Shown: positions 20,553 to 42,910 of the stretch, one piece after another
Layout of the letters: every line of letters starts with the position of its first letter
Position numbering within the stretch: position 1 is the stretch's first letter
Assembly: GCF_019393635.1 (NCBI RefSeq)
Contig: NC_057866.1
Span: 9,682,223-9,746,222 of the forward strand
Length of the DNA stretch: 64,000 nucleotides
From: Dromiciops gliroides
Taxonomy: Eukaryota; Chordata; Mammalia; Microbiotheria; Microbiotheriidae
Reading direction: 5' to 3'
Translations under genes and position numbers: made by a program
The notes under the pieces: model-generated
Database searches by the model: none
Seen by the model: the letters and a program-made list of their open reading frames with translations, nothing else
What the model was told of the DNA's origin: nothing

Positions 20553-20702
20553 TCAGATCTTGACCACCTGGGCCGCCGTGCACGGACCCTTCCTCCCACT
20601 GTCGTCGGCAGCCGGCCTGCTGATGTACAGACGCCCAAAGGTGCCCCCTACCTGCCCCTTGGCGAGGCGGCCCGGGTTCATGCAGACACAACCTAAGATG
20701 TC
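20553..20702 (-). CDS. POLA2: POLA2 exon 18 (residues 558-606 and stop)
   Basis: 150 bases with the TGA; DILGCVCMNPGRLAKGQVGG then TFGRLY and the C-terminal QVVKI. Confidence 0.97.
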   Translation of the reverse strand, partial: DILGCVCMNPGRLAKGQVGGTFGRLYISRPAADDSGRKGPCTAAQVVKI

Positions 20703-23700: not shown

Positions 23701-25227
23701 GTGTCTTCTGATAGAGCCCTCTTTAACTGCCCCTCCACTGGAGGCAGGCACTCAAGGTCACACGCTCAGGAGGGAAGGAGGCTGACCAGGGCAGCGCAGC
23801 GTGCCCTTTGTCCCTGGAAGCTGGGCTGGCCTAACTCAGCCCACCGTGCTTCTGACTGGCAGGCCACTCAAACCCCAGATACTTCTCACTGCTGAGCCTC
23901 CCCATCTCAGATCCAGAAGTTTCATTTTCTTTTTTTTTCTTTTTGCGCAGGGCAATGGGGGTTAAGTGACTTGCCCAGGGTCACACAGCTAGTAAGTGTC
24001 AAGTATCTGAGGTCAAACTTGAACTCAGGTCCTCCTGAATCCAGGGACAGTGCTTTATTCACTGCGCCACCTAGCTGCCCCAGAAGTTTCATTTTCTAAG
24101 CCCAAAGGTGAGACTGTCCATTTCTTCTTAGATTTACCTCTGCCTTGCGGGGGTTAACCAGTACCTGTTTGTCCTCTTTGGGAAGGTCCGGGAAGCTGAA
24201 AGGTGGCTGGGGGTACACGGGCTGATGGTGCACATCTCGCAGGGATGGGATGAACACAAGGTGGGTGCCTGAACTATGCATCAGAGAACAGAGAGGTACA
24301 GCTGAGTCATGACAGGAAGCTGCTGAACAGGAGGGGAGGAGGCAGTGCCCCAACCTCCCAGGGGAAGTTTTCAGGGAGGCCTATTTTCCTGGGGGACTGA
24401 GGGAGGAATGATTGGGAATCACTGGGAGACAGACATTTGTAGATGCCAGCCCTGCAAGTCTGCTTTACCAGGCTGCATTGGTTAAAAGGGAAGGGTTTTG
24501 GGGGCAGATTGTAAAGGGACATGTGTGCACATGAACAGTGATGCCAACAAGGAGCCACACACGCACACATGATCTAAAGGTGATCCTACCCTCCTCTTCT
24601 TTGGTTAGGGAAATGTTCACGTCCACTGGTGTTTGTGGAGTCTGCAGTGACACCACATGGAGCTGGCAGGTCAAGGACCCTACCACTGGGCCACCTCCTA
24701 ACTGCTGGGGCCTCGTCTGCAGGGCTCCTGGATCGCTCAGGCTTGGGGCTGGCTCTGAGTCAGTTGTGAAAGTTCCCTGGGGCTCATGGCTCCAGGTTAT
24801 TTGAAGGACCCTTTTGGTTTTGTGATCTGATGGTTCCAAGACTCTCACGGGGACTCATCACCTAAAACCTGACCCTTGGTGGCAGTGCCCTGCCTGGGAA
24901 GGCTCAGGGATGATTTTTACCATCTGCCATGGAAGATCATAGGAAAAGAGGCCTCACTGGTGGTAGAGCCAGGAACCTGCAAGTTCTTACTACACTTGGG
25001 ACCTGACTCACCATTTGTCTAGTAAAGTGGCATGGGGCGGGCACCTCACACTGTTTCCTGGGAAAAATCAGGCTGACTCACACTGGGCCACAGGTCCTAA
25101 TACTGCTAATGCAAACATTGTGTCACAACCACAAGGTGATAAAGATGCACACTCCAGGGAGTCTGGACGGAGAAAGAACCAAGCTCCATTTTCACTTAAT
25201 TATGTGTGGAGCCGCCCCCCCCCTGCG

Positions 25228-25263
<36 letters not shown>

Positions 25264-28200
25264 CCACCAGCACTGCTCTGCAGACCACCTACAGAAAATG
25301 AGCCACGCTGCTACCAGCAGCGCTCAGTCTCGTTAGAGCTACAGCAAAAAGCAAAAGCCAAGCCCTCAGAGTTCAGTCGTGTGCCTTTGCGGGAGGAGAC
25401 AGAGGACATGGGACCCTGTTCCTGTGGCTTCCATGAGCCACCTGTGGTAGAGATGGCCACGTTAGGGCCATACTGGAGGCATGTCCACCCACAGCTCATT
25501 GTCCTGTCCCTGGGTCCTCAGGGATGAGGTCGTGTCCACGGCAGATGCTCCACAAACACCATGGACTGGAGAACCAGAAAGCTCATCCTGAGGAAATTGG
25601 ACATTTGGAAAGTTTTGGCCCCGGGAAGCTGGCTGCCCAGCAAGGCTGATGGGTGGTGGGGCTCTGGACCACTGCTCTGGGGCCTGAATGACTTTCCCAT
25701 CAGTCGTAGCTGTCCCCATCCTGAAGAGTGACGCTCACAAAGGGGTCTATGCAGCTGGCTTCTGTGGGAGCTGCCAGGAGGTAGGCCCCACGGGGGCCCC
25801 AGTCCACGAGGTGGCCCCGGGGCCGTGTGTGCTGCCCAGCTTCCCTGGAGGCGTTCAGAGAGTGTTTGTTAGGAGAAAACAGCCTGGCTGCTTGTGGCTC
25901 TGAGCCAGCTGCAGGGGGAGGGACTGGGAGGACAATTCCAACTATGTTCCGGGATTTCACAACTTCACACATCGTGGTGGGAGGGTTCCCACAGGCTCTT
26001 CCTCAAGTCCCCAGCATGGGAACAAGGGTACTCGGTCCCTGGCCGGAGCCACAAGGGCAGCAGGAGCCTCCTGGGTCCAGGCCTCACTGACTGCCGGGCT
26101 CAGGGCCAAGGACACACCTCAGCTGGGCCTGACACTTCTCTAAAGGGAAGGGGAGGGAGAGACATCCCACCACTGAGGAGTCTGGAAAATTTGGGAGGTG
26201 CCCCCCCCCCCCAACAGTCACTAGCAGCAGATGAAAGTGCCTGGTGGTGCCCTGTACGGCCCTTTGGGAACAATGTCGGGTCTGTTCTTTGTTGTTACTC
26301 TCGGTACCACACAGTGGTGGGAGGCCAAAACCAGAACCAACCCCTCCCATGCGGGCATCTCCCCACCCTCCGGGCCCTGCTGGAGCCCTGGGAAGGCCCA
26401 AGGGCAGCCAGGAAGAGCACCTGCCCCAGCCGCTGAGGGGGCTCACTTAGCCAGTGCGTGATCTTACTGGCGCTCCGGCCCCTGGGGCCAGCCGGCCCCT
26501 GGGAGGGAGAGCTGAAGGCCTGCCTAGGAGCCTGAGGTCAGGCCTGGCTCCACCTCCCTGGTTAGGAAGTGCTCCAATTACTAATCACATCCAGGGATCA
26601 GTTCTCGGCTAAGGGGCAAAGGCCACGCCTCTCCTTTGGAGAAAACCTTGGTGACAGGGACTTGTTTTTTCTAGGCTCATCCTCTGCTCTCAGACAAGAG
26701 TGAGCGCCCCCCCCCCACCCCGAGGGAGGCAGGCCTGGGGCCGAGGACGTCTGCTTCCTGAATGACTTTCTAGTCCCCAAATTAGATGCGGCCTCTCTTT
26801 CGTATCTGATATGACCCTTTTAGAGGCTGCTTTACGAGAATAGCTCAAAAACTCTGCTCTAACTTGTTACTGTTACTGTTAGCGGCTTCTAGCTGCCACC
26901 CCCGTTTGCCACAGCAACAGCGAGAGGGAGGAGAGGGGAGTCGGGGCAGGACCCGGAGAACGTGGATGGGTGGCCTGCTCCTGACTGAGGCTCTAGGCCA
27001 GAGAAGCCCTCCAATGTTTCTCCAGGATTCACCCCAGAAAGATTCCCATGGTGGGCCCCTAGGAGGGAGACAGCAGGAGGGGACACCAGCTCCCACTCAC
27101 TGCTGACCATCAATACCCCACACAGTGTTGGGTGATGAAGTGGGGGTGGGGAATCTGGGAAGGTGGAAGTTTCTATGGACCCTGCTAGCTGGCACACTCA
27201 AAACCTCACCTTCTGGTCCCTTCGATAATTGTCCGCAAACAACGTCTGAACACTTCTTCAAACGAGGTGGTCAGCTGACAGTTCTGTAAGAAGGGGAGGG
27301 ATGGGCTGAAGGTGGCGGGACAGCAAGTGCTGCCCACAGGGGCCCCAAAGCCACCATCCTGAAAACCAAGCTGGTCCCTGGGAAGAGCCCTTTGAAGGGC
27401 TCTGTGCCCAGGTCAGTGGGGTGGGAAGCCTTTCCTCAGTGCTGGCATCAAGGCCCTGCTGGGCACGTGATGTGCCCCAGAGACACCTCATTAGCATGCT
27501 CTGCTAGGGTCCTGGCCAGGAGGGAGGGGCCCTTTGGACCCTCTGGGCCGGGTATATTCTCAAGCAGGAGTAGACGTTTCAGAGGCGGTCAGCCTTCTCC
27601 TAGCCTGCTGGGAGGGCCTGAGGGTTTTCCCAGGTGGCTTCTCTTACCTCAATCTGTTCATGCTTAGCATCAAGGAAAGGTCCCAACTGCAGAGAAAGAG
27701 AAACAGAGGTGTCAACAGGGCAGGCTGATGGGAAGACCAGCCAAACAGTGGGGGACAAAGGAGGGTCCCCCAAACTGGAACGCTTCTCCAGAGCCTGCCT
27801 GGCACAGGGAGGCCTCCCCAGAATCCTGTTTTCGGCTCAGCCGCAGGTAGAAGGGCTGCCATGCTTGTGGGCGTGGTTGGAGGGGGCTAGCCCCACCCCC
27901 CCACATGCTGCCTAGGAGGGAGGAAAGGAACCAATTCCCTACTGGACGAGTCGGCCCAAGGCAGATGGAGACACGTCCACCTCCCTGAACAGGGCAGAGC
28001 CAGAGGAAACCAAGGCGAGAGCCAAGCTCCAAGCATCTCAGGCTGGGGGAGCCAGGCAGGCCGCCAGTCCCCGAGGGCATAGCTCCAGCTCTCAGGCCAC
28101 CACAGCTACCCAGGGGCCTTGTACCAGAATGCAGACGTCCGGCTGGTCTCTGGCAATGACACTGATCAGGTCGATCATGGGGTCGTAGGTGACGCTGTCA

Positions 28201-31200
28201 GACGTGGTGTAAGGCCCACAGGCGACCAGGACCATCCGCTGATCTGAATCTGGGAAGGACAGCAGGACTCAAGAGGCTGTGGACATGACTGATGCTATGA
28301 GCACTGTGGGGGGTCCGGGGGCTTCAGGGAAAGGAGTAACAGAGCTCTGCTGGGAGCTGCCCCCCAGGTTCTTGCTAGGCAGCACCCCTTCATGCCTCTA
28401 AAGGGACGACCTGTCTCCTCTGTTGGGCCCTGCACTGCCCCTGCCCCTTGACTCCCGCTGGGAATCATTTCCTGCATTGCTCACTAAACACGAGCACCAG
28501 AACTTGAAGGTAGTGGCCATCCCCAAGGGTCTGTTTGCTTGTAGGGAGGGGGGCTTCAGTTCTATGCTCACGACAAACGTTATTTCCCCTCCTGTTTCTC
28601 ATCTGGGCTTCAGCACTTCCAGGACATGAGACTTCACCCCCCATTGCAGATTGCAGCTCCCCAGTGGTCTGGCATTTCTTGTGGGTCAGGGGCTTCCCTG
28701 GACTGGCGGGGCTGAGCCCACAATGGGAGAGTGGTGGGAGAACATCCTCATGCAAACCCTGCCTCTGCTTAGGAATTCTTTGGCCAGTTCCAAATACATC
28801 AGCACTGGGCCATGCACCTGCCCCTCCTGTGGCCCCAACCATGAGTGTCCCAACCACATGTGACCAGCCCCAGCTCCCTCCACCATTGTTACTGATGTTC
28901 GCTCTATGATGGAGAATCCACGCTTGAGGACCCTTGGCCTGTAGCTACAGGGTGGCCCTGCCGGCTTTCCCCAAAAGGAATTCTATTTTTTTTGTGGGGC
29001 AAAGGGGGTTAAGTGACTTGCCCAGGGTCACACAGCTAGTAAGTGTCAAGGGTCTGAGGTCGGATTTGAACTCAGGTACTCCTGACTCCAGGGCCAGTGC
29101 TCTATCCACTGTGCCACCTAGCTGCCCCCAGGAATTCTATTTTTAAACCCAAACTCACCTCCATCCTCTTCTGTGGGCTGGTGGAAGGGAAGAGGCACGC
29201 CCTTAAAAACAAGAACAAGTTCAATTAAGGGTGTTTGCTGCATTTGGAGCAAGGAATCTTGGGCTGGGGGGAGGTGGCAAAGCCCTCTCCCTCAATCTTT
29301 TTTTTTTTTTGGGTGAGGCAATTGGGGTTAAGTGACTTGCCCAGGGTCACACAGCTAGTAAGTGTCAAGTGTCTGAGGCTGGATTTGAACTCAGGTCCTC
29401 CTGAATCAAAGGCCAGCGCTTTATCCACTGCGCCACCTAGCTGCCCCCCACTCAATCATTTCAGAGGCTAATGACTGGTTCTTGCCACCTTGCTAAGGTG
29501 CAGAGACGGCGGCAAGGAAAGGAAGCTGGGACCATGGCTGTCCTTTGGAAGCGTTCAAAGCGCTTAACGCGTGCTGCCCGTGACTGCGTGTGGGGTGTCC
29601 GGCCCCTGAGGGTCACTAAAGCCAAAGGTCATAGGTTGGCCTCCTGTGCCTCAGAAGCAAGTGAAAAGCCCCCTGTGGAGGCCGTCTCTGGCCACGTGGT
29701 CAGCAGCTTATTTCCCTCCTGTCTGTGAGGCCTAGGAAGGGGGCGCGACCCCCAGGAGGAGCCACCCTGGGACAGAGCTCGGTCTCACCTCGTAGAGTTT
29801 GGTGGCAATGAACCTCTTTCCTGTCGTGTTGGTTCCCTCCATAACGACCACCTGAAACACACAGAGCAGAACCCCCAGCCCCTCAGGAGGCTTCTCTGAA
29901 GGAAGCTCCAAATGTGTTCAGGGGCTTATTCCCTAGGCCCTCCCCATGCCCAGCAGAGCAGCCCCTGACTAGCTGACTCTGGCGCTGTCTGGCTCTCACA
30001 CCTGGGGAGCTCCTGAGAGGAGGCCTCCCTCCATCCCACTAGGGCCAAGAGCCAGGAGGCTGCTCTGAGCCCCGTGTCCCCGAAGGATGATGATGGAGCC
30101 TCACCTGGCCAGGAAAGAGCGAATATTCCTTGAGCTCCGAGAGATCCACTGGGATCTGCATCCCTAGGGAGTGCTCCCGGTCTCCTTCCAGAATCACTGA
30201 TTTCGAGTTCAACTTCCCATTGCTGTCACAGCCAATCTGTCCCAGCAAAGTGACTGGTTCCTAGGGAAGAAAAGAGGTAACAGGAAGATGGCAGCCTGAG
30301 GTGGGACCCCCCCCGCCCCGCCCCCCCCCCCAGCTCCCAGAGCTGTTCAGGGGAACGAACGAACAGGACCGTAGCTCTCCACATGGCCCTGACCCAAGTG
30401 AACCTGAGGCTTAGCGATGCCAACGGTCCCTGGGAAATCTAGATGGCCACGGCACCCCGGGGGAGCAGGTTCAGTTCATACAAGTGGTACATGAAAGGAA
30501 AGCGATGGGAGGACCCCACTTAGGAGTGGGGCTGCAGCTGGCCCTCAGCCCCCTGCCCCCAGTAGTGTCTAGCCACTCAGACTCGAGGTTCAGGTCAGGC
30601 CAATGTGGAGAGGGGCGGGGCTCAGCTCACCTGGGCCGGCACGGAGACCGAACTGAAGGCCTCAATCTTGTAAACCTCTTTCAGTTCACAGCCCAGCTCT
30701 TCAATCTTGCAGGTCAGAACTGAAGCCGAGAGGATCAAAGGCCTGAGGGTCCACAGGAGGAAAAGGCCCCCCCCACCCCCAAGGTGTGGAGCACACGGGT
30801 GGTCGGCTGGGCGCTGCCCATGTGGGCGGCTCTAGGGGCCTGAACAGCTTCCAACAGGCCCGCCGGGTGGACAGCTCCACCCCCAGCCCCCGTGACCCGA
30901 CTTCTAGCTCCATGCCTGCTTCTGTGCTTCCCTCCAGCCTCTACCCTTGGCACTAGAGAGCAGCCCGCCCCCTCCCCGAGCCTCCAAAACAAAGCGACTG
31001 CCTCTCCTGACACCAAGAAGCACCAGGTGAAGGGAGGACTCCCAACAGGGCCCCCATGTCCTGAGATGAAAACCGAGGGGAAGGGGTTTGCTCCTGGGCA
31101 GCAGCCCCGAGCCCAGGGCCTTCTGATCCATCCCAAACGGTGACCTTTGACTCCTCAAAGGGGCGTCTATGGAGTGGTCAGGGGCAGGACTAACTCAGCT

Positions 31201-34200
31201 GTTGCCTGTGGTCCTGAGGCCCTGAACATGAAGACTACAACCATGAGTCAGGCCCAAGATCTCGCTCAGCCCCATGTGGCCAAAGGTCTGGTGGCCAGAC
31301 CTTTCCACGTGCGGGGCTGTCATGGGGATATCTGTGGGGGTGGGGGTGGGAAGCACCTTCTCGGACGTCTGTGAGCTTCTGGAACATGGATTTGTAGGTG
31401 CCGGTGACGCCTCTGGCACCGTCCATGACCTTCACCCTGAGGCCGCCGCCGCCTCCTTTCCCGGACCACGACATTCCCTGTGTGGAGCCAAAGGAGGTCA
31501 CCACCTCTCCGCGGCTGCTTCTGGAGCTGTACTTCTGAGAGGGCGTGGCACTGGGCAGGAACAAAACAGAGGGCCTCCGCTGGGCGCCACGTTGGCCACG
31601 TAGCCTATGGGGACAGGGTCTGCCAGGTCCCGTTGGCACCGGGACTGCGGCCCCAGCCACATGTCCAGGGGCTGAGGGTGCTGACAGATGGGCCTGTCTG
31701 AGGACTCTTACAAAAGGGACCCCAGGTAGTCCAGAAAATACTGGGAGGGGTTTGGGTAAATGAGCGTATCTAGGGTTACACTGTTCCCCAGTGGTTTAGC
31801 AAGACCCCAAGCACCCCCTAGAACTCCAGGGTGCCCTCCGGGAAGGCCAGCTGCCTGCAGAGCAGCACAGGGCTGCACAGCTGAGCTGGCACTTGGGCCA
31901 CGTGCCCCCACCCCCAAAGGAGGTTGGTCAAGCTCACCATCAGGATGCCACCCCTCCCCTCCCTAAGCTGGAGCAGGTGCTGGCCCTGGCAACAATGCTG
32001 AAGCAGGGCCGCACCACCTGCCAAGGCCGTGTCCCACAGGCCACTGAGGATAGTGGCTTTGGGATCAGGGGGAGCACACGGACCCCCAGCACTGCTTTGT
32101 TACTGGCCCCCTATCCCACACCTGACCAACTCAAATGTTTAACAGCCAGTCCAGTCCCGCCTCTCTTCACCTCTGGGCCAGCCTAGACACTCAGGCCTGG
32201 TCTGACCTCTCCAAGCCAGGTACATCCCCAACCTTCTGCCCCAGGATGGCCAGAGTGGAGTCACCCAGCCCTGGAGGCCGCCTTTGCCAGAGAGGGGCCT
32301 GGGGCCACTCCCAACAATGGGGATGAGGGAGGGCTGCAGCAGGAGGGGACCCTGGGGACCCCAGGCCCTCCTCACACTGTGGCAGCTGCAGGGTCAGGGA
32401 GAATGCGTCACCTGAACTCTAGGAGACCTAGATTCAAGCCCCTGCCTGGCTGAGTGACATGGGGCAAGTCATGTCTCTCTGGGCCTCAGTTTCCTTCTTT
32501 CTGCCACCGGCCTGACAAGTGGGCCCTTGGCTCCTGCGCCCGCTGCCTCCTCCTGAGGAGCCCACCCCAGTCGTGGGGCTCCCCTCCTCTAGGAATTGTT
32601 AGGCAGCTTTTCCTTTCATGAAGCCCAGGTCTGGGCTCTCCCTCCTGGTGTTCCTCACAAGGAGGTTTCCTCTCGATCCCTCCGTCTAGAAGATGCTTAT
32701 TGCGGGGCCTGAAGTCTGTTCTAGATCCTCACAGGCCTTTTCACTGAACCTTGTCTGGGGTGATCTGGTGGCCCTTCCCTTCTCTCCCTACACTCTCCGG
32801 CTGAACAGGACTGCCCAGAAGTAGCTGGAGCAGGGAGGAATGCGCAGGCCGGTGGCACCTTCCCCGGCCCAGGCCCTAGGCCTTTATGCCCGCTCGAGTC
32901 CGCAATGTGTGAGACAAAGAATTTAAGAGGGCAAAGAGTCCATGAAAACCAACCAACAGCAAGTCCAGCACGGCACGTCCTCATCAGAGAAGGCCCGCGC
33001 TCTATGCGCACTTGGAGAACCCGCCCCAATATTCAGTTTGGGCCCAACCTGGGGCAGAGCCTATTGGCAGACACACAGCCAGCCCTTGACTCTCACACAC
33101 CACCTGAGCTTTCTCTTCAGAGCCAAGCCCAGCATCATACTTACAATGCTCAGGCAAAGAAAAACAAAACAAAGCAAAGCTTGAAATTACTCAAAACCCA
33201 CGCTTGAAATCCCATTTTATTTTCCATTTCTGAGCCTAAATGTGTGTGCAATGGAGAGGAGACCCCTCCGCCCAGGGGTGCTAGAGGAACACTGAATTAT
33301 TCATGGCTAGTAGGTAATCAGGCCGCTGGTTCACCAGGCCTGGAGTCAGGAAGACCTGAATTCAAATCCGACCTCAGACACTTCAGAGCTGGGTGACCCG
33401 TGTCAAGTCGCTTTACCCTATCTACCTCAGTTTCCCCATCTGTAAAATGAGCTGGAGGACATGGCAAAGCAGTCCAGTATCTCTGCCAAGAAAACCCCCT
33501 ACTGTATTGGCATGTGATGGTCCATGGGGTCATGCCTCAACAAGGTGGTCTCTTACTTTTTTTTTTTTTTTAAACTTTTTTTTTTTTTTTTTTAGTGAGG
33601 CAATTGGGGTTAAGTGACTTGCCCAGGGTCACACAGCTAGTAAGTATTAAGTGTCTGAGGCCGGATTTGAACTCAGGTACTCCTGAATCCAGGGCCGGTG
33701 CTCTATCCACTGCGCCACCTAGCTGCCCCGTGGTCTCTTACTTTTAATGGAAGAACACTCTAGGCCTGCCACATCACGTCTATGTGCCGTCACCATCACA
33801 GCAGTGATGTCATACCATTCTCTGGCCATGTCTATCCTGAACAGGAATGAGCACTGTATCTTTGACAACTCTCATGCACCCATTATGTAATCAGCCCCCC
33901 GGGAGCAAATACAAAATGCCTGGTTTGTCCTGCCCCTCCTGCGTTCTCACACCTCACTCCCCAACACATCCTGGCTGTTCCCCCAGCATCCTCTCTGGCT
34001 GTCCCCCAGGTCTGGCTCTCTCACCTACCTGGCTTCAAACCCCAACTCAAACATCCCTTTCATGGGAAGCCTTCCCCAAGCCCTCTTAGTTCCAGGGCAG
34101 ACTTTGTCCCTCTGTTTTACAGCCTTCTTTGTATATGTTCATGGGCATGTTGTCCCTCAGCTAGACCAGAAGCTCCCTGAGCGAAGGGACTGGTTTTGTA

Positions 34201-37200
34201 CTTTGCTTTGTATCCTCTGTGCTTAGCAGTGCCTGGAACAGGGCAGGTGCTTAATCAATGCTTGCTGACTGACTGTCCCAGGAATGGGAGGTGAGCCACC
34301 TGATGCACAGAAGCCTTCCCATGAGCCAAGGTTACAAGGGCCTGGCTCCCTCCAGGACGCAGAGCTGTGAGAAGCCTCGAAGGCTGGTGAGGTGGCTGGC
34401 AGGGGCCACACAGGCAGCAAGTGGCTGGGCCAGGGCAGGGTTCAGGATGCTCGGCCAGGGACGGGCAGGTCAGAGGCCCTCACTTCTCAGTCACAAGCCA
34501 AGGCTACCTAAAGCAGGAGATTGGAATTTCTCTCTGCTCCTAAGTAATTTAGGAATCATTTTCAGAACATACAAGGCCCTGTTTCTTTCTTTTTTTTTTT
34601 TTTAGAAATATTTTTAATTTTTTTTTTGTGGGGCAATGGGGGTTAAGTGACTTGCCCAGGGTCACACAGCCAGTAAGTATCAAGTGTCTGAGACTGGATT
34701 TGAACTCAGGAACTCCTGAATCCAGGGCCGGTGCTTTATCCACTGCGCCACCTAGCCGCCCCCAAGGCCCTGTTTCTGACATCGGCTTACTCAGCCCAAG
34801 TCTCCTTGCTTCTCACCCTGCCCCGCCCTTCCTGTGAGCCATCTGAAAGGGGCCCCTGGCACACAACGAAGGCCCATACTCAGGTCAACTTTATTTGGTT
34901 TGGTTTGGGTTTTCTGTGGGGTTATGAGGGTTAAGTGACTTGTCCAGGTTCACACAGCTAGTAAGTGTCAAGTGTCAGAGGCAGGATTTGAACCCAGGTC
35001 CTCCCGATCCCAGGGCTGGTGCTTTATCCACTGTGCCACCTAGCTGCCCCCTCAGGTCAACTTTAAAGCTCCCCCCTCCCCCCTGCCTTGTTCTGCCTGG
35101 CTCCGGTAGGGGGGCCGGCACCCACACCTGCAGTTTCTAGGAGACCCCACAGAGTTCTGAGGTGCTTGCTCATTTACGAGGGCAGGGAGTCCTCCCAAAG
35201 GTAGTGAGGGAGTCTCCTCAGCCTCTCCCCCATCCCCCCCAGCCTCTCAAATTTAATGACCACCCCTCTGGAGGAACGGGAGAGTCTGGATCCCATCCAT
35301 TCTGAACCACCAGGGTTCTCGACTCAGTTTTACTTTAAACTTCTGGCCCCCACCCCAAGGAGGCCAAAGGCAGGAAGAAAGGCCCAAACATGGCCAAGGA
35401 AAAGAGCACCCTGGGGATGGGAAAGATGGAAACAAAGCAGATGCCCAGCGAGTGGGGGATGGGAAACAAACTGTGGTGTATCAATGTCCAGGAGCACCAC
35501 CGTGACTTAAGCAATGAGGACCGGGGGCAGCTAGGTGGCGCAGTGGATAGAGCACCGGCCCTGGATTCAGGAGTATTTGAGTTCAAATCCGGCCTCAGAC
35601 ATTTGACACTTACAAGCTGTGTGACCCTGGGCAAGTCACTTAACCCCCATTGCCCTACAAAAAAAAAGAAAAAAAAAAAGAAATGAGGACCAAGAAGGAC
35701 CAGGAGAAGCCAAGCCGGTGTCTGCGTAGACAGAGGAGGCTGGACTAGGAAAATAACCCCTACAGGACGATTTCAGCAACAGGAATGGGAAGACCGAGAC
35801 CAAGACGGAGCTGGACGCTGCTGGATCTTAATAATGGGGCCGAGCACGTGGCCAGGGAGGAGGGGAGAAAGCTCGGCTCCCTCCTGTCGTAGAGGCCCGT
35901 GCTATGCTCCCTTGGCTGACGTGCTGGTCAGTCTTGCTGCCCTGCTTCTCCTTCCTTCTTCCCCCCTCCCTTTCCCCTCTGAATAGACGAGGGGAAAGAA
36001 TATATTTGGAATTTAAAGCACCAAAAAGTCCACCCCCCCCCCCAGCTCTGCCAAGTGTCTGCTGTACTTAGCGCTTTACTGGTCAATGCAGGGATGACCC
36101 CTCCCACCCTGTACTGTCCTTCTGCTCCCCTGGGCACTGACCTCAGGGAGCTGGGGGTGGGGGGAAAAGAAATGGAGCCCACATAGGAAATGGTACTTGG
36201 TGGATCTCCAGGACCCCCAGAAACAAAGCTAAGGCCCCCGGCCTCTCTGGAGTGGACATGCGTGTTGCCTTGGTGAGTGAGGGGGAGGGTCTCCTAAGCC
36301 AGCCTAGGGCTGCCAGGAAATGTCCCAGCTCTGTGTAACTTGAGTGAGGAACAAGAAGTAGGTTATGTAACATTATAGGTGCAGATTGGATTCTTTTAAA
36401 AACAGCAAAACAACAATTCCTAATCCTTTGACCATTTCAGAAAACGCCCAACAAGAGAAGCCGGTGAAAGCCCATTTGAACCAGCTGACAGGCCACTAGC
36501 TATCAGCTGTTCCTTATCTAGGAAGTGAGCCCTTGAAAACTGGGCAGAAGTCAAATTTCCTCAATGACTCCAAGACACAGTAATTTTCCATAAAGGAAGA
36601 GCCAAGTGGATGCAGGGTGAGCAGGGCAGGCACCAGCCCAGCGTGCTGGCCTTCTGCACAACCGCCCCTGTCCTTGGGGTAACTAAGATGGTCCCCGCCT
36701 CCAAAGAACCGACCCTGGCCCCGTACCTTGGTGAGAAGCTGGAGGGGGAAAAAAGCAGATGGGGGCTGCGGGCTGCCACCACATTCCGTTTGGACTGGGG
36801 AGTCTCAGGGGTGCTGACGCTGCGTTTCTGAGAACCCTGGAAGGAGAGCGGCACATCAGGGCCAGGCAACATGAAGTCCGAGTTGTTGAACAAGTGCGGA
36901 GTCTCGAGAAGGAATGAAAGGGAGAGGCCACAGACAAGCGGGGGATGGGAATGCACTGGCCACCCCAGAGAAACCTGTCTAAAATGAGAATCTAGGCCCC
37001 CATTTCCAAGGCAGACAGGCCAAAGCACAAACCACTTAGGATTTCACAAGAAGCCCCATTCTGATGGCTGACCATGGCAAGGAGACCTGGCAGCCCTGAC
37101 CTGGTCTTTTTTTTTGGGGGGTGGTGGTGGTGGTACGCAATGAGGGTTAAGTGACTTGCCCAGGGTCACACAGCTAGTAAGTGTCAAGTGTCTGAGGCTG

Positions 37201-40200
37201 GATTTGAACTCAGGTCCTCCTGAATCCAGGGCCGGTGCTTTATCCACTGTGCCACCTAGCTGCCCCCAGCCCTGACCTAGTCTTACTAAGCTGCCATGCT
37301 GTGAAATATGGGACAGGGATGGAGTGTGCGTTTGCTGAATGAAGGTCAGTTTAGTTAAATTGGTAGAGGTCCAACAGCAGGCTAGCTTCCGGGGGGATTC
37401 ATTTTGGCCATGGCAAGTCCGGAAAGCCCATCTATAGGCCTTGGGGGACTGAAATCTGCCTTCCTGCAGGGTATCCACCCTGATAAAGTCACAAACCCTG
37501 GAAGTCTCCAAAGGTACCAGGCAGAAACGCTTTCCCCGGTGATTCCTGGGGGGCCAGGAAGCCGCCCTCTCCTATTCTTTAGATGATAACACAAGCTACT
37601 GTGACCTGACGGACGATATCCTTCCTGAGATGGGCTAGGGCCAAGTCATCGCTCATTCTTTGCACTTTATTTGTTTGCCTTTTTTTTTTTTTTTAAAGTG
37701 AGGCAATTGGGATTAAGTGACTTGCCCAGGGTCACGCAGCTAGTAAGTGTTAAGTGTCTGAGGCCGGATTTGAACTCAGGTACTCCTGATTCCAGGGCCG
37801 GTGCTCTATCCACTGTGCCACCTAGCTGCCCCATTCTTTGCACTTTATTGACTTGATCTTTTTCAAATAAAAAAAGGAGCGAGTCCAGCCTGATAACGTG
37901 TCTGAGCTCTGGCTTGGGCCTGTCCGGCCCATACTCTAGGTCATGTTCTCGCTGGAGAATTCAGGAGTTTTAATCCAAGTCCCAGCAGGAAAAACCGCAG
38001 GGTCTGGAAGGCTGGGAATCCACTGTCTCTAACCTAGTTTGTGAGACCCCAGACAAGAGCTTTGCTTTCCTCGGGGAGGCCGGGGAAGGACTCAGCTGCA
38101 AAGGAGGAACAATATTAAAAATAAAAAATCCTGCCTTGAGCTGGAGCAGGAGCCAGAGCCAGAGCCAGAGCCAGAGGCTGCACTTGGGCGCCCCCTGGGG
38201 GCTTGATGGGGGTCTGGCTCCTCAGGCACAGATGCTCCTTAAACATTTTTGAGTTCAAGACTGGGCCTAAAACAAGCCACGGCAGTAGCTCTGCCTTCTG
38301 CGAGAAGCCCTTCTCGCCCCACCCCCCAATCAATGCTCTTCACCCTCTCCCGGCGAGAGCTTGCCTGGCATTCTCTCTCCCCTTAGACTGGAGATGTTCT
38401 CTGCCTTTCACTGTATCCCTAGAGCTTAGCCCAGTGCCTGGTATACACCGGGCACTTAATAAATGCTTATTCACTGGTGGATAGAGGTACAACCTCACAT
38501 GGTGACCAGACAGTTTTAAATTACACAAATCTAAGTGATTAAACACTAAACCCAAACCCTTTCCAATGAAAATCTTCCGCCTTCTTTGGTGATATGGGGG
38601 GTGACTCCACCTTGAGCTGAGGGGGCACAAGAACAAACCGCGCCTAGCATGTGTAACGACTGCCGAGTGTAACACACTGACTTCCCGCACCTAGACATAA
38701 CTGACTGAAGCCGTGTGGAACGCCACGCTTCCCAGAGTGTTCGCTCACCTTGGATGGCGTTGTGTAAGAGTTCAGGAGGGTTTCTTCTTTGGCTTCCACT
38801 TCAATCCTGAGCATTGGAGTTATGGAAAACAAGGCGTGGACATGAGCCCCCAGCCCGAGCTCTGAGAGGCCAGGGCTTGGGGCACGCTGATGGTGCCCTT
38901 GTCCTTGCCAGAAAAGGATACAGCTCTTGAATGGAGACAATGTCCCAGGTGCCCGGGTGGCTGTTGTCCTTCTTGGTGGCACTGTGCCGGGCTTTGGCTA
39001 TTCTTTTGGTTAGAAACTGGGGAAGAAAGGAAGGCAGTAATGTGGCATTGACAAAGCCCCAGGTTCTAGCTCCTGCTCAATAAACAGATATTAGGTGCCA
39101 GGGAAGAGAAGACACAGTGCCTGCCCTTGTCAGGCTTACAGTTCAAGAACAGGACAAGACACGGACAGAGACAACATGAGTTTGGGTGTATTGCCTGGAG
39201 AGGAATCATGAGACAAGGTTGGAAATGCTGTGGGGAGGGGGCTGTAGGGGGCCTACATATCAGTCTCGGTAGGAAGAATGGCGTTTCTCTAGATTGTGAT
39301 GGAGTTGGAGGTGGGGGAGAGAGGCCAAAGACCTGTCTGGGAGTGACTGTACTCGTCCCCAGGTGTGGGAATGAATGTAAGAGATGCTCCGAGGGTGGAA
39401 TCCACGGGATTTGGGAGCCCACCGAGGAGAGAGGGAACAGACGTGCCAGCAAGAACCCAAGTCTTCAAACGTGGGAGATGAGGCGATGGTGTGGACAGAA
39501 ATGATGCCTTCAAAAGGAGTGACACATCATTCAGTATAGTCTGGAGTGGCTCAGTCTGAGGGACTGGTGGTACCTTTTCCAGAAAGAGCCGTCCTATTGG
39601 CAGTTAAGGATGAGATCGGGGCCAGGCAAGCTGCAAGCTGGCGGGGTGGGACACAAAGGTGGCCGTGGGAGAGGGGCTAGTGACAGGAGAGGCCGAGACA
39701 CAAGGGACAGCACGGCCCAAGGCCCAGGAAGATGAGGAGTCAGCAGAGAGAAGCAGGAGGGCTCAGAAGTGAAGAGAGGAGCCCATAGGAAGGGGAGTCA
39801 ACAGTGCAGACAACTGGGGCACTGGCCGTCTGAGAGGTCCCTGGGGACCGGAGGGGGCAGCAGAGGCCAGGGGTGAACCAAGAAATGACCAAGTCCCAGC
39901 TTCTCTCCTCAGAGGTCTCACTCGAGATGCAACAGAGGCCACACTGCAGGGGCTGAACAGAAGGGAGGTCGGGAAGGAGAAGCATCTTCTCATAAGCTCA
40001 GCAGTGAAAGGGATGGAGACGGGAGGGCAAAGTCAGAGAGAGGCCTGGAGACCAGGGAAGCCAGGGATTATCTGGAGGCAGCAGAGAGGGAGAGAGTGAC
40101 AAGGGACAGAGACAGGGGACTCCTGAGGGGAGGCCCTGAAGAGGCAGGAGAGCAGGTGTGGGTATGGATCAGTTCTAGTAAAGAGGCCAGAGGAAGCAGG

Positions 40201-42452
40201 AAACAGCAGGGGAGTTGGCTGAGAACTTGCAACAAGATGAGAGGGGATGTCGCCGGCTGCCTAGGCCAAGGTGGGTGGTGTTGGAGACTTCTTTTTAAAG
40301 CAGTCTGGGGGCAGCTAGGTGGCGCAGTGGATAGAGTACCGGCCTCGGAGTCAGGAGTACCTGAGTTCACATACTAGCTGTGTGATCCTGGGCAAGTCAC
40401 TTAACCCCAAATGCCTCACTAAAAAAACCAAACCCCCCCCCCCCAAACCAAACAAAAATAAAGCAGTCTGGCCCAATGATCTCAGGAGCTTTTCTATGCG
40501 AGGCAGGGATGCAGGAGGCTAAGCCTCTGCCTTTGACCAGCTCCCAGACTCTCAGAAGGAAAAAGCCCCTACTAATACCTGACCCAGAGCAAGGCTTGGT
40601 GAGTGTCACCTGAAGGACTGAGATGCCCCAGGTACAGGGCACAAGGACAGGCTCTGTGGCCCTGGCAGATACCACGGACTACGAGAGGGACCAGCCGGAC
40701 TACAGTCAAGGACTGCGAGACAAGGACCAGAGGGGAATTTTCTCAGCCAGGTGTGAAGTGGGGGGATGGAGGGGAGAGTAAACTTGGGTGGCTCAGGACG
40801 AGAAAGGAGAGGGGGTGGGAGATCAGATGCCTAGAAGGAGATCCTGCAGTGGGAATGTGGGGGAGGGAGCTGGCATTTAGAGGGCACTTGAAGGTTTGTA
40901 AAATGCTGCTCCAATATTCTCTCATTTGATCCCCAGAGCAACACAGGGAGGCGGGTACTATTATCCTCACCCTCATTTTATAGTTGAAGAGACAGGGTTA
41001 AGTGACTTGCCCAGGGTCACATGGCGAATGAGTGCTTGAGGCTGGGCTGGAGCTCAGTCCTCCCAACTCCTCAAGCTGGCAGGACTCAGGTCACACCCCT
41101 TGTGTGTGAGGTTTCAGCTACCATGTGCAGAACACTGGAGGCGGGAGGTGGCCCCAGACACACAAACCTGCATCTTCCACACACTCTTACCTCATTTCCC
41201 TTTTTTTTTTGGTGAGGCAATTGGGGTTAAGTGACTTGCCCAGGGTCACACAGCTAGTAAGTGTTGTGTCTGAAGCTGGATTTGAACTCAGATCCTCCCG
41301 AATCCAGGGCCGGTGCTCTATCCACTGTGCCACCCAGCTGCCGCTTACCTCATTTTCAAAGGAGCTGAGGTTCTCCAAGGTTAGGAAGACTTTGCCGGTG
41401 TTGCTGCTAAAGGCGACCAGCTCGGCCACCAGCTCATCCTCCGTCTGCCTGTACAGCGGGCACAGCTCCACCACTGCGGGACAGAGACAGGTCAGCAGCC
41501 GCCTCTCCCCACAGGTCACCTCCCTGGGTCCTCTGCAGGTCCTAAAGATCAGACCTTCCAGCACGTGCCTCCCCCTCCCTGTGGGTCCTAGTGGGTTTGG
41601 CCACAGAACACCCCACAGCAGGGGTGAAGCCCTTTAAGTTCCCAGAACTCCCGAAGGAGGTTCTGTGAAACACAGGGCTGAGCAACACCCGGGGCCAGCC
41701 CGACGGAGTGAGATGTTCCCTGGGCTGAGAACTTGTGAGGGACACAGAGAAGCCCACGAAGAGCTGGAGCAACTGACGCAGCAGAGAGCAACAGACGAGG
41801 AGGCTGCAACAATGGGAGAGGCTGAGGATGGGGGGGGAGGGCAGTGCCCGGCCCAGCCCGCACAGGCCGGCAGACTCTGGGTCCATGGGCTGTGCTGAGG
41901 GTGCTGCCTCTAGTTAACACTGTGCATGGATGCGCATGGATGTAGGCGTGCCTGTATTTATCTGGGCTCCCCAACTAGGGTGGAAAGTGTGGATAAAAGC
42001 ACCCCCTCCCCCAGCCATGGCACCTGGAGGGGGGGATTTAGTGTGTGCCTCCTGTGTACCAGCCCCCCCTTCCATTCCTGGCAATACCTCTACCCTCCCC
42101 CCCCACTTTACATACAGTAAGCACTTAATAAATGCTTCCTCTAACGGAGGAGACAGGGGCACACTCCCCCAGCCCCTCCAGCCAAGTACTTGGGGTGGGG
42201 GAGGGGTCAGAGAAGGCTTCCCCAGGAGCCGGCGGCGCCTGGGGTAGGGAGGGCACCCCGGGAGAGGGGCCGGCCAAAGGCTCGGCAAGGGGAAACCGGG
42301 GCGGGGGGGGGTGCCTGTGCGTGGGGTCCGGAGGGGTCCCGCCCCCCGCACTCACGCTTCTCGTAGGCCGCCTCCTCGCAGTCCAGACCGAACATCTGCA
42401 GCTCGGAGGCCAGGCGCTCGGCCGACACGGAGCCGGAGCCCCCGGGCCCCAT
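20553..42452 (-). CDS. POLA2: POLA2, DNA polymerase alpha subunit B (complete, 18 coding exons)
   Basis: POLA2 is the regulatory B subunit of the nuclear DNA polymerase alpha-primase complex; it ties the catalytic subunit to primase and to the replisome when DNA synthesis starts. Eighteen exons join into a 606-residue frame with GT-AG ends and matching phases. Human POLA2 is 598 residues as recalled. Layout: N-terminal helical domain about residues 1-80; a Ser/Thr/Pro-rich linker about 110-180 with STPETP at 133-138, a likely CDK site; an OB fold about 225-345; and an inactive phosphoesterase-like domain about 345-590. The C-terminal end is QVVKI. The start ATG at 42452 has G at -3 and +4 and no other in-frame ATG precedes it nearby. 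Introns hold most of the SINEs. Oddities are a U12-type intron 3 and a SINE at the exon 2 donor. Confidence 0.97.
20925..21160 (-). repeat. MIR-like fragment in POLA2 intron 17
   Basis: Contains 'cccattttacagatgaggaaac', shortened here, and 'gtgacttgccaaggtcaaac', with 'taacagcctgccatgtgccc' before it. Confidence 0.6.
21410..21536 (-). CDS. POLA2: POLA2 exon 17 (residues 515-557)
   Basis: 127 bases; YYPLYPPFDEMSIDYEHFYS and AQLPVTPDVFIIPSDLRYFV then K. The donor AAG/GTCCGT is weak at +3 and +4. Confidence 0.96.
21993..22052 (-). CDS. POLA2: POLA2 exon 16 (residues 495-515)
   Basis: 60 bases; SSSTSDRFSRILKHILTQR. The Ser-rich start fits human SSSSGTSDRFSRILKHIL. Confidence 0.96.
22895..23001 (-). 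CDS. POLA2: POLA2 exon 15 (residues 460-495)
   Basis: 107 bases; RVHFMSDPCTLSINGVILGL then TSTDLLFHMGAEEIS. Confidence 0.97.
23180..23485. repeat. CA-rich minisatellite, 55-bp period, in POLA2 intron 14
   Basis: The unit with 'gcaaatacagatacacacaa' recurs at 23201, 23256 and 23311, exactly 55 bases apart, then decays into (CA)n to about 23485. Open frames here are artefacts. Confidence 0.95.
23931..24080 (-). repeat. WSINE1-like SINE with 17-bp target duplication
   Basis: CAATGGGGGTTAAG variant. CAGAAGTTTCATTTTCT stands at 23914-23930 and again at 24081-24097. The near edge is 84 bases past the exon 14 donor. Confidence 0.96.
24165..24273 (-). CDS. POLA2: POLA2 exon 14 (residues 423-459)
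   Basis: 109 bases; SGTHLVFIPSLRDVHHQPVY and PQPPFSFPDL. The position of the metal-binding histidines of active phosphoesterases is taken by the family's DVHH segment; the subunit is known to be catalytically inactive. Confidence 0.97.
24274..27209 (-). other. POLA2: POLA2 intron 13
   Basis: Largest stretch of this gene without a WSINE1 copy (about 2.9 kb). Apart from the C35 tract no feature was recognised. Confidence 0.8.
25228..25262. repeat. Uninterrupted C35 tract in POLA2 intron 13
   Basis: Thirty-five consecutive C on the plus strand (G on the transcribed-gene sense strand), after a short GCCGCC-type lead-in. Length in the true genome is uncertain because such runs are badly assembled. 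Confidence 0.9.
27210..27283 (-). CDS. POLA2: POLA2 exon 13 (residues 399-423)
   Basis: 74 bases; NCQLTTSFEEVFRRCLRTII then EGTR. Confidence 0.96.
27648..27686 (-). CDS. POLA2: POLA2 exon 12 (residues 386-398)
   Basis: 39 bases; LGPFLDAKHEQIE, phase 0 at both ends, so skipping would keep the frame. Confidence 0.96.
28125..28249 (-). CDS. POLA2: POLA2 exon 11 (residues 344-385)
   Basis: 125 bases; MVLVACGPYTTSDSVTYDP, the start of the phosphoesterase-like domain, then ARDQPDVCIL. Confidence 0.97.
28991..29129 (-). repeat. WSINE1-like SINE close to exon 10
   Basis: Target duplication AGGAATTCTATTTTT at 28976-28990 and 29130-29144. The SINE begins about 29 bases past the exon 10 donor. Confidence 0.95.
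29159..29201 (-). CDS. POLA2: POLA2 exon 10 (residues 330-344)
   Basis: 43 bases; GVPLPFHQPTEEDG. A SINE lies in the intron about 30 bases past its donor. Confidence 0.95.
29298..29448 (-). repeat. WSINE1-like SINE in POLA2 intron 9
   Basis: CAATTGGGGTTAAG variant, poly-T start, flanked by 'ctcaatc' repeats. Confidence 0.94.
29789..29851 (-). CDS. POLA2: POLA2 exon 9 (residues 309-329)
   Basis: 63 bases; VVVMEGTNTTGKRFIATKLY plus E. In-frame exon, phase 0 at both ends. Confidence 0.96.
30105..30260 (-). CDS. POLA2: POLA2 exon 8 (residues 257-308)
   Basis: 156 bases; EPVTLLGQIGCDSNGKLN and IPVDLSELKEYSLFPGQ, almost identical to human. Confidence 0.97.
30631..30719 (-). CDS. POLA2: POLA2 exon 7 (residues 227-256)
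   Basis: 89 bases; VLTCKIEELGCELKEVYKIE, start of the OB region. Confidence 0.95.
31357..31550 (-). CDS. POLA2: POLA2 exon 6 (residues 162-227)
   Basis: 194 bases, the longest; ATPSQKYSSRSSRGEVVTSF and YKSMFQKLTDVRE. Contains a five-Gly run where human has GGAGN. Confidence 0.96.
32405..32505 (+). repeat. MIR-like fragment
   Basis: Contains 'gagtgacatggggcaagtca' and 'gggcctcagtttccttctt'. Confidence 0.6.
33310..33545 (+). repeat. MAR1-type longer SINE
   Basis: Has 'ggagtcaggaagacctgaat', 'ctcagtttccccatctgtaa' and 'ggcaaagcagtccagtatct', the longer SINE body in the plus orientation; the 3' end is diverged. Confidence 0.7.
33561..33729 (-). repeat. WSINE1-like SINE
   Basis: CAATTGGGGTTAAG variant with an A/T-rich tail interrupted by 'aaac'. 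GTGGTCTCTTACTTTT is repeated at 33545 and 33730. Confidence 0.95.
34130..34275 (+). repeat. L2-like 3' end
   Basis: 'Agaagctccctgagcgaagg', 'ctgtgcttagcagtgcctgg', 'gcaggtgcttaatcaatgct' in order. Confidence 0.65.
34587..34762 (-). repeat. WSINE1-like SINE
   Basis: CAATGGGGGTTAAG variant with a complex T-rich tail. CAAGGCCCTGTTTCT at 34572-34586 and 34763-34777. Confidence 0.95.
34895..35050 (-). repeat. WSINE1-like SINE
   Basis: Tail is 'tttggttt'-rich instead of pure T. CTCAGGTCAACTTTA at about 34880 and 35051. Confidence 0.94.
35524..35682 (+). repeat. WSINE1-like SINE
   Basis: 'Acatttgacacttacaagc', CCCCCATTGCCC end, A-rich tail. Flanked by 'aatgaggacc'. Confidence 0.94.
36727..36836 (-). 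CDS. POLA2: POLA2 exon 5 (residues 126-162)
   Basis: 110 bases; GSQKRSVSTPETPQSKR then SPSSFSP. Carries the STPETP motif, a likely cyclin-dependent-kinase target in the linker. Confidence 0.96.
37108..37266 (-). repeat. WSINE1-like SINE in POLA2 intron 4
   Basis: CAATGAGGGTTAAG variant; tail has a GGTGGTGGT run. Flanks share 'cagccctgacctggtctt', with one change. Confidence 0.94.
37672..37831 (-). repeat. WSINE1-like SINE in POLA2 intron 4
   Basis: CAATTGGGATTAAG variant; flanked by 'cattctttgcactttatt' on both sides. Confidence 0.95.
38143..38178. repeat. (GAGCCA)n hexamer repeat
   Basis: About five tandem GAGCCA units. Confidence 0.85.
38390..38480 (+). repeat. L2-like 3' end
   Basis: 'Tgtatccctagagcttagcc', 'cagtgcctggtatacacc', 'gggcacttaataaatgctta'. 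Confidence 0.7.
38749..38806 (-). CDS. POLA2: POLA2 exon 4 (residues 106-125)
   Basis: 58 bases; IEVEAKEETLLNSYTTPSK, matching the human acidic stretch and LLNSYTTPSK. Confidence 0.96.
38807..38921 (-). other. POLA2: POLA2 intron 3, U12-type (minor spliceosome)
   Basis: 115-base intron. The donor GTATCCTTTT fits the U12 5' consensus RTATCCTTT. A branch-site match TTTTCCATAACTCC (one mismatch to TTTTCCTTAACTCY) lies about 13 bases before the AG, the spacing typical of U12 introns. There is no polypyrimidine tract. Confidence 0.85.
38922..39016 (-). CDS. POLA2: POLA2 exon 3 (residues 75-106)
   Basis: 95 bases; FLTKRIAKARHSATKK through DIVSIQEL. The downstream boundary is not a normal GTRAGT donor but GTATCCTTTT, the U12-type consensus. 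Confidence 0.95.
40307..40460 (+). repeat. WSINE1-like SINE in POLA2 intron 2
   Basis: Internal gap removes 'aatccggcctcagacactt'. Tail is A/C-rich. Flanked by 'aaagcagtctgg'. Confidence 0.93.
40875..41075 (-). repeat. MIR-like element
   Basis: 'Ggtactattatcctcaccct', 'cattttatagttgaagagac', 'gtgacttgcccagggtcaca', with 'gcacttgaaggtttgtaaaa' before: a MIR body in reverse. Confidence 0.65.
41198..41343 (-). repeat. WSINE1-like SINE inserted at the POLA2 exon 2 splice donor
   Basis: Complete SINE, CAATTGGGGTTAAG variant, ten-base poly-T. The 12-bp target duplication CTTACCTCATTT stands at 41186-41197 and 41344-41355. On the minus strand that target is AAATGAG/GTAAG, so it contains the last seven bases of exon 2 and the first five of the intron. 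The SINE head starts at intron position +6, and a second copy of the donor follows the SINE, 158 bases downstream in the gene. Confidence 0.96.
41349..41473 (-). CDS. POLA2: POLA2 exon 2 (residues 33-74)
   Basis: 125 bases; encodes LVELCPLYRQTEDELV through LSSFENE, the rest of the N-terminal helical domain. Acceptor CCCGCAG. Its donor GTAAG is followed directly by a SINE (see the SINE at 41198-41343). Confidence 0.96.
42356..42452 (-). CDS. POLA2: POLA2 exon 1 (residues 1-32)
   Basis: Begins MGPGGSGSVSAERLASEL and includes FGLDCEEA, which matches human FGLDCEEA. It is a few residues longer at the start than human. Donor GAAGC/GTGAGT; ends in phase 1. Confidence 0.95.
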
Positions 42453-42737: not shown

Positions 42738-42910
42738 GGCAGCTAGGTGGTGCTGTGGTTAGAGCACCGGCCCTGGATTCAGGGGGACCTGAGTTCAAAT
42801 TCGACCGCAATACACTCGACACTTACTAGCTGTGTGACCCTGGGCAAGTCACTTAACCCTTATTGCCCCGCCAAAAAAAAAAAAAAGAAAAGAAAAAAGA
42901 AAAAAACCCA
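42738..42910 (+). repeat. WSINE1-like SINE bordering the POLA2 promoter
   Basis: Head 'ggcagctaggtggtgctg', 'acactcgacacttactagc', CTTATTGCCCCGCC end, long A-rich tail. Lies about 285 bases upstream of the start codon and marks the edge of the island. Confidence 0.93.

What the first reader, a model, noticed from the sequence alone, without database searches (positions are those of the whole stretch)
41186..41355. SINE insertion duplicated the POLA2 exon 2 splice donor
The 12-bp target duplication of the WSINE1-like copy at 41198-41343 is AAATGAGGTAAG on the gene strand, which is the exon 2 donor itself. The gene now has two identical donors, one on each side of the SINE. Use of the second would add 158 bases: 52 open codons of SINE, then a frame shift that meets TAA two codons into exon 3. 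The first donor keeps the 125-base exon but with +6 supplied by the SINE. So one transposition may have made a low-level poison-exon isoform in a replication gene.
Basis: seen in the sequence. Interest (0 to 1): 0.75.

Follow-up and report, generated by a model that had tools for sequence, protein, structure and literature searches.

The report
SINE insertion duplicated a POLA2 donor
In this apparently marsupial genome a small jumping element landed exactly on the start of an intron in the DNA-replication gene POLA2, copying the splice signal to both sides of itself; the first copy should keep the gene working, and at least three other genes in the same genome carry the same kind of scar.

Summary
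A 146-nt WSINE1-like SINE (41343-41198, minus strand) lies between two identical 12-bp copies of AAATGAGGTAAG, each carrying the POLA2 exon 2 donor; the donors match from -7 to +5 and differ at +6 (C/A). Using the second adds 158 nt and gives a stop at codon 129, 88 nt before the next junction (expected NMD). POLA2 is otherwise intact (18 exons, 606 residues); a search with spliced exons 1-7 found no second copy. Only donor 1 gives that protein, so donor 1 must carry working expression. In a published reporter library the first of two consensus donors was mostly used (pairs 2-77 nt apart; here 158). A low-level donor-2 isoform is possible but unshown: no RNA was available. It would be an exon extension, not a poison exon. 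About 5-6% divergence makes an assembly error unlikely. New here: 778 places in this genome have AGGTRAG 0-3 nt before a WSINE1 head. In 198 read, at least three end recognisable coding exons (INPP5-type, ABCA-type, DNAH12), each with a second donor-like copy after the SINE. POLA2 belongs to a recurrent class, a natural test of tandem-donor choice.

The parts
20553..42452 (-). POLA2 coding region, start codon to stop codon, 18 exons, 606 residues when donor 1 is used
   Evidence: tblastn with human POLA2, exon assembly, PDB match of the exon 2-4 peptide
41349..41473 (-). POLA2 exon 2, 125 nt, acceptor tgtcccgcag|TGG
41344..41355 (-). upstream copy of the target-site duplication AAATGAGGTAAG; holds donor 1 (last exon base 41349, GT 41348-41347; +6 = C from the SINE side)
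41198..41343 (-). WSINE1-like SINE, sense to the gene, tail AAAAAAAAAAGGG
   Evidence: 46 nhmmer hits in the window; K2P 0.046 without CpG sites, 0.060 with, from the consensus of 35 window copies; no other scored genome copy above 96% identity
41186..41197 (-). downstream copy of the duplication AAATGAGGTAAG; holds donor 2 (last exon base 41191, GT 41190-41189; +6 = A, the pre-insertion context)
38922..39016 (-). POLA2 exon 3, 95 nt; the shifted frame meets TAA at exon nt 5-7
40310..40427 (+). antisense WSINE1-like copy in intron 2 that could pair with the focal SINE and loop out donor 2
   Evidence: hit; predicted duplex -198.6 kcal/mol against a minimum of -90.6 for other sampled pieces; role is speculation

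Best explanation
A WSINE1-like element was copied by target-primed reverse transcription into an A-rich site at the end of POLA2 exon 2. The 12-bp staggered break spanned the exon/intron junction, so filling-in left a complete donor on each side of the SINE. The upstream donor, joined to exon 2 as before and with only its +6 base changed, is the one the spliceosome uses: the mRNA is unchanged, the SINE ends 151 nt into intron 2, and the downstream donor is a redundant relic used rarely or not at all; any such transcript would be degraded by NMD. The insertion was tolerated because the duplicated site is a donor and the upstream copy wins. Shown: anatomy, duplicate donors, reading-frame consequences, intact gene, recurrence in other genes. 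Inferred: donor 1 dominance, NMD and the insertion mechanism.
For: Anatomy. Donor scores 6.31 and 5.97 bits on a recalled frequency table and equal U1 duplex energy, -9.6. Only the donor 1 join gives the human-like POLA2 protein; the 18-exon frame is intact, and the exon 1-7 search gave 7 matches, every one an exon of this gene, so a gene recalled to be essential must be spliced from donor 1. PMC6783452 (passages): with both tandem donors set to consensus the first was predominantly used (p = 3.3e-5), and equal-strength sites favour the first. RNAplfold makes donor 1 9- to 85-fold more accessible than donor 2 in four settings. Three other exons in this genome carry the same arrangement: INPP5-type (PDB E 1.7e-9), ABCA-type (E 3.2e-17), DNAH12 (E 1.3e-15); donor-2 use meets an in-frame stop in the first two, and in DNAH12 adds an open 160 nt that shifts the frame. 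Age: K 0.046-0.060 over 0.0045/Myr (PMC3403934, section 16) gives about 10-13 Myr.
Against: No RNA data. The library's tandem donors were 2-77 nt apart; here the spacing is 158 nt and intron 2 is 2332 nt. The same paper calls earlier evidence conflicting; an intron-proximal preference for duplicated donors is recalled from the SF2/ASF literature. The empty-site donor was predicted about as inaccessible as donor 2, so the accessibility gap may mean little. Age is soft: several differences are shared with other copies, so it could be only a few Myr. An unchanged 12-bp downstream copy is expected 48-57% of the time at this divergence, so its identity shows no selection.
Confidence: 0.82

Rival explanations
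1. Donor 2 is used appreciably (intron-proximal preference of equal donors), so a sizeable share of POLA2 transcripts is destroyed by NMD and the insertion lowered POLA2 output, as the first reader proposed in a milder form.
For: Both donors are in the top 1% of GT sites on the gene strand of the window (21 and 28 of 3135 score as high). Donor 2 keeps the original intronic context. The long product has a stop 88 nt before the next junction.
Against: First-donor preference in the tandem-donor library (PMC6783452, passages). The insertion stands in a gene recalled to be essential, and similar insertions stand in other genes.
Confidence: 0.1
2. Pure neutral scar: donor 2 is never used, and the duplication has no consequence at all. 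(A sub-case of the best explanation.)
For: First-come preference; higher predicted accessibility of donor 1.
Against: Donor 2 is a strong site; some leakage from such sites is common (general knowledge).
Confidence: 0.35
3. Assembly error or a rare young allele of the sequenced animal.
For: Only one genome could be read; no relatives were held.
Against: The SINE has its own differences from the family (about 5-6%), no other scored genome copy is above 96% identical to it, and it has a clean duplication and a normal tail, in a contig of 280 Mb.
Confidence: 0.04
4. The SINE pairs with the antisense SINE in intron 2 (40310-40427), folding donor 2 into a loop of about 770 nt and leaving donor 1 just outside the stem, so structure enforces the choice.
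For: Predicted duplex -198.6 against a minimum of -90.6 and median of -66.3 kcal/mol for other sampled pieces of about 140 nt.
Against: Copies of one SINE in opposite directions pair in silico anyway: an antisense copy upstream of the gene scores -233.7. A partial sense copy at 41071-40973 could compete. No such fold has been observed.
Confidence: 0.08

Closest known systems
Canine merle allele of PMEL (SINE at the intron 10/exon 11 boundary, 15-bp target duplication; PMC7349775, passages)
   Same: A SINE inserted at an exon/intron boundary with a target duplication at a splice site; the SINE leads to alternative splicing.
   Different: Acceptor side, antisense SINE, cryptic acceptor inside the SINE, changes coat colour depending on tail length. 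Here donor side, sense SINE, both competing sites are copies of the original donor, and the arrangement looks tolerated.
Introners that take a splice site from their target duplication (PMC9860276, passages)
   Same: A transposon's target duplication supplies a splice site.
   Different: Introners create a new intron from the element; here an existing intron gains length and a spare donor. That paper reports no evidence for introners in mammals.
Tandem alternative 5' splice sites, including duplicated-site library variants (PMC6783452, passages)
   Same: Two equal donors in series, with a first-come first-served choice.
   Different: Those were designed or native sites 2-77 nt apart; here a SINE separates them by 158 nt, and usage is not measured.
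WSINE1 CORE-SINEs of Australian marsupials (PMC3403934, sections 15, 16 and passages)
   Same: Short element with a poly(A) tail and target duplications, expected to be moved by LINE1; recently active.
   Different: Nothing evident beyond the insertion place; the name was assigned by resemblance, not by a repeat library.

Membership tests
WSINE1 CORE-SINE | poly(A) tail and flanking target-site duplication | tested here: met
   AAAAAAAAAAGGG tail and 12-bp duplication
WSINE1 CORE-SINE | high-copy family in the genome | tested here: met
   46 nhmmer hits in 64 kb, 35 nearly full length; genome search scored 40 of 948 candidates, giving 41 matches: 40 near full length at 92-100% (the focal copy included) and one partial at 87%
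WSINE1 CORE-SINE | tRNA-related head and truncated 41-nt CORE | tested here: inconclusive
   Head reads like tRNA A and B boxes by eye; ARAGORN and Rfam (gathering threshold) gave no hit; no repeat library to compare with
WSINE1b subtype | 7-nt insert near position 80 | tested here: inconclusive
   Window consensus has the tandem GACACTT GACACTT there, in line with the position and length given in section 15 of PMC3403934; the published letters were not seen
Tandem alternative 5' splice site | two competent donors serving one exon | tested here: met
   Identical from -7 to +5, scores 6.31 and 5.97, U1 -9.6 both; competence is by score only
Tandem alternative 5' splice site | both donors used in RNA | not testable with these tools
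   no RNA reads
Poison exon | separate cassette exon carrying a stop | tested here: not met
   The extra sequence is a 3' extension of exon 2, not a cassette
NMD target | stop more than about 50-55 nt upstream of an exon junction (recalled rule) | tested here: met
   Stop at codon 129, 88 nt before the exon 3/4 junction, in the long form
Introner | element itself becomes a new intron | tested here: not met
   The SINE lies at the start of the 2332-nt intron 2, which has its own acceptor

The most novel reading that the evidence does not exclude
Donor duplication by target-site duplication is a recurrent, splice-safe way for sense-strand, L1-moved SINEs to settle at exon ends: A-rich exon ends and donors are good cutting sites, the upstream donor copy keeps the mRNA intact, and the G-rich WSINE1 head can even rebuild or strengthen donor positions +5/+6 (in DNAH12 the SINE-side donor reads CAGGTAAGG while the downstream copy reads CAGGTAAAA). 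Each case leaves a spare donor that can leak into, or later evolve into, a SINE-containing isoform, so the genome holds ten or more natural duplicated-donor experiments.
Probability: 0.3. Interest if true: 0.62.

Novelty: new variant of a known kind. Interest (0 to 1): 0.5.

Why it matters
Which of two identical donors is chosen has been studied with constructs, with conflicting earlier evidence according to PMC6783452. Here nature made the same duplication in POLA2 and in at least three other genes of one genome, at spacings of 158-182 nt, beyond the published library. RNA from one animal would test the first-come rule in native genes and show whether SINE insertions on donors are silent or cost expression. 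It also explains how an element can land on a splice site of a needed gene without destroying it.

Tried and rejected
Retrocopy as fossil transcript: the 753-nt spliced query of exons 1-7 gave 7 matches from 6 scored candidates, every one inside the POLA2 gene of the window, so no mRNA record was found at that sensitivity.

Assembly artefact or very young allele: judged unlikely from divergence, tail and duplication.

Selection on the downstream donor: not testable from one genome, since 12 unchanged bases are expected about half the time.

Rfam (gathering threshold) and ARAGORN found nothing in the window. POLA2 with 'U12-type intron' gave no paper. Five searches for splice-site duplication by an insertion listed no title or abstract start that describes a mammalian donor-side SINE case. 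Only titles and abstract starts were seen, the lists were partly capped (20 of 23, 12 of 14), a listed paper on LINE-1 insertions and MET exon 14 (PMC12934576) was not opened, and most subscription papers are not held; absence from print is not claimed.

Class survey: 778 places match AGGTRAGN{0,3}GGCAGCTRGGTGGY. I read 198 of them besides POLA2: the 100 listed, the 58 others of the 65 CAGGTAAG places and 40 of the 65 GAGGTAAG places (6 more were already among the 100, one is POLA2, 18 were not fetched). The sample is not random: first-listed places of contig C1 plus two donor subsets. Of the first 100, 66 met a loose script test for a duplicated GT; some of these are chance, and many downstream copies are not good donors. 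Coding exons were called from open frames ending at the donor. Fifty peptides went through Pfam with one hit (INPP5-type); ABCA and DNAH12 were recognised by eye and confirmed against PDB; one further peptide had only a chance-level PDB match, E 0.82. The remaining frames, including those, were judged by eye only. Pfam missed two real exons, so three of 198 is a lower bound. For most of the short 186-191-nt pieces the downstream duplicate was not read.

In one search the antisense copy 42738-42882 is labelled intron 1; it lies upstream of the start codon (42452) and is used only as a counter-example. Scripts stopped with errors and were rerun; the exon 18 look-up found nothing and was redone in 64 and 65.
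Full report
What is there. On the minus strand of the window lies a complete POLA2 gene. tblastn with human POLA2 placed its exons. Assembling 18 exons from splice signals gave one open frame of 606 residues and a stop, and the exon 2-4 peptide matched the solved human protein (5exr/4y97, E 3.3e-29). Exon 2 is 41473-41349. Straight after its donor lies a 146-nt SINE, 41343-41198, in the same direction as the gene. The SINE is bounded by AAATGAGGTAAG on both sides, 12 of 12 identical. Each copy contains the junction GAG|GTAAG.

The two donors. They share every base from -7 to +5 and differ at +6 (C from the SINE side, A from the original intron). On a recalled frequency table they score 6.31 and 5.97 bits; U1 pairing energy is -9.6 for both. 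Only 21 and 28 of 3135 GT sites on the gene strand of the window score as high. The other POLA2 donors range from -2.34 to 7.47, leaving out the U12-like intron 3, and the exon 12 donor is the same 9-mer as donor 2.

Consequence of donor 2. Exon 2 grows from 125 to 283 nt. The SINE is open in that frame; the protein runs on for 52 codons, then reads S-F-stop at codon 129. The stop lies 88 nt before the next junction, so NMD is expected by the usual rule (recalled). This is an alternative 5' splice site, not a poison exon.

Which donor is used. No RNA was available. Three arguments favour donor 1. First, only the donor 1 join makes POLA2, the frame is intact, and a search of the 3.3-Gb genome with spliced exons 1-7 matched only this gene. 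[quoted passage not shown] those sites were 2-77 nt apart, so this is an extrapolation. Third, folding predicts donor 1 to be 9- to 85-fold more accessible than donor 2, though the pre-insertion donor was predicted about as inaccessible as donor 2 and must have worked, which weakens this point. I therefore expect normal splicing from donor 1 with little or no leakage.

Age. The SINE differs from the 35-copy window consensus by K2P 0.046 without CpG sites and 0.060 with them. Among the scored genome copies no other exceeds 96% identity. With the WSINE1 rate of 0.0045 per Myr in PMC3403934 (section 16) this gives about 10-13 Myr. Some differences, including the 2-nt deletion, are shared with other copies (4 of 41), so the true age may be only a few Myr. 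Either way an assembly error is unlikely. At this divergence an unmutated 12-bp copy is expected about half the time, so the perfect duplication does not show selection on donor 2.

Not a one-off. In the same genome 778 places have AGGTRAG within 0-3 nt of a WSINE1 head (384 forward, 394 reverse, 0 for the reversed control pattern). I read 198 of them besides POLA2. Three end a recognisable coding exon. L011 is an inositol polyphosphate 5-phosphatase exon (Pfam E 8.7e-7; PDB INPP5K E 1.7e-9), with AAAAGGACCAGGTGAGGG before and AAAAGGACCAGGTAAGGG after the SINE. L028 is an ABCA-family exon (ABCA1 E 3.2e-17) with AAGAACAGGTAAGGAGG, 17 of 17 identical. L124/L173 is a DNAH12 exon (E 1.3e-15) with donor CAGGTAAGG before and CAGGTAAAA after. 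Using the second donor would add 163, 182 and 160 nt; the first two meet in-frame stops, the third stays open across the SINE but shifts the frame. Three of 198 is a lower bound, since the exon test misses short or unfamiliar exons (Pfam missed two of the three) and many frames were judged by eye. No exon was recognised among the 40 GAGGTAAG places. Simple scaling of 3 of 198, or of 2 in the first 100, to 778 places gives about 12-16 such genes for this narrow pattern, but the sample was not random.

Mechanism. [quoted passage not shown] LINE1 nicks A-rich sites (recalled); exon ends such as GAAAATGAG|GTAAG fit, and this gives a sense-strand SINE whose duplication spans the donor. In the DNAH12 case the WSINE1 G-run appears to supply +5 and +6 of the upstream donor, making it better than the downstream copy. 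This is inference from one case.

Relation to known cases. The nearest precedent seen is canine merle, a SINE with a 15-bp target duplication at an acceptor (PMC7349775, passages). Introners take splice sites from target duplications but form new introns, and that study found no evidence for them in mammals (PMC9860276, passages). Five searches of the open library, of which I saw titles and abstract starts, listed no donor-side SINE duplication in a mammal; this does not show that none is published.

Verdict. A real, cleanly dissected natural experiment, most likely harmless to POLA2, belonging to a recurrent class that makes the tandem-donor rule testable in native genes.

Noticed in passing
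38807-38921: POLA2 intron 3 (115 nt) looks U12-type: 5' site GTATCCTTT, identical to the U12-GT consensus quoted in PMC6783452, and a branch-like TTTTCCATAACTCC shortly before the acceptor. A search for POLA2 with 'U12-type intron' found no paper.
   Followed up: partly
L116 (G000:C5:123996640-123997240): Two WSINE1 copies in a row, each preceded by AAGAATCCCCAGGTAAG: a donor-like site that was hit or duplicated twice. The upstream sequence looks non-coding by eye.
   Followed up: no
L173 (G000:C1:742738500-742738980): DNAH12 exon where the SINE-side donor (CAGGTAAGG) is closer to consensus than the downstream copy (CAGGTAAAA), as if the SINE head had improved the donor.
   Followed up: partly
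40310-40427: Antisense WSINE1-like copy in intron 2 that could form a long hairpin with the focal SINE; possible editing substrate.
   Followed up: no
L200 (G000:C3:442172424-442172609): The open frame before the GAGGTAAG there resembles part of a LINE1 ORF2 protein (recalled resemblance, not searched).
   Followed up: no
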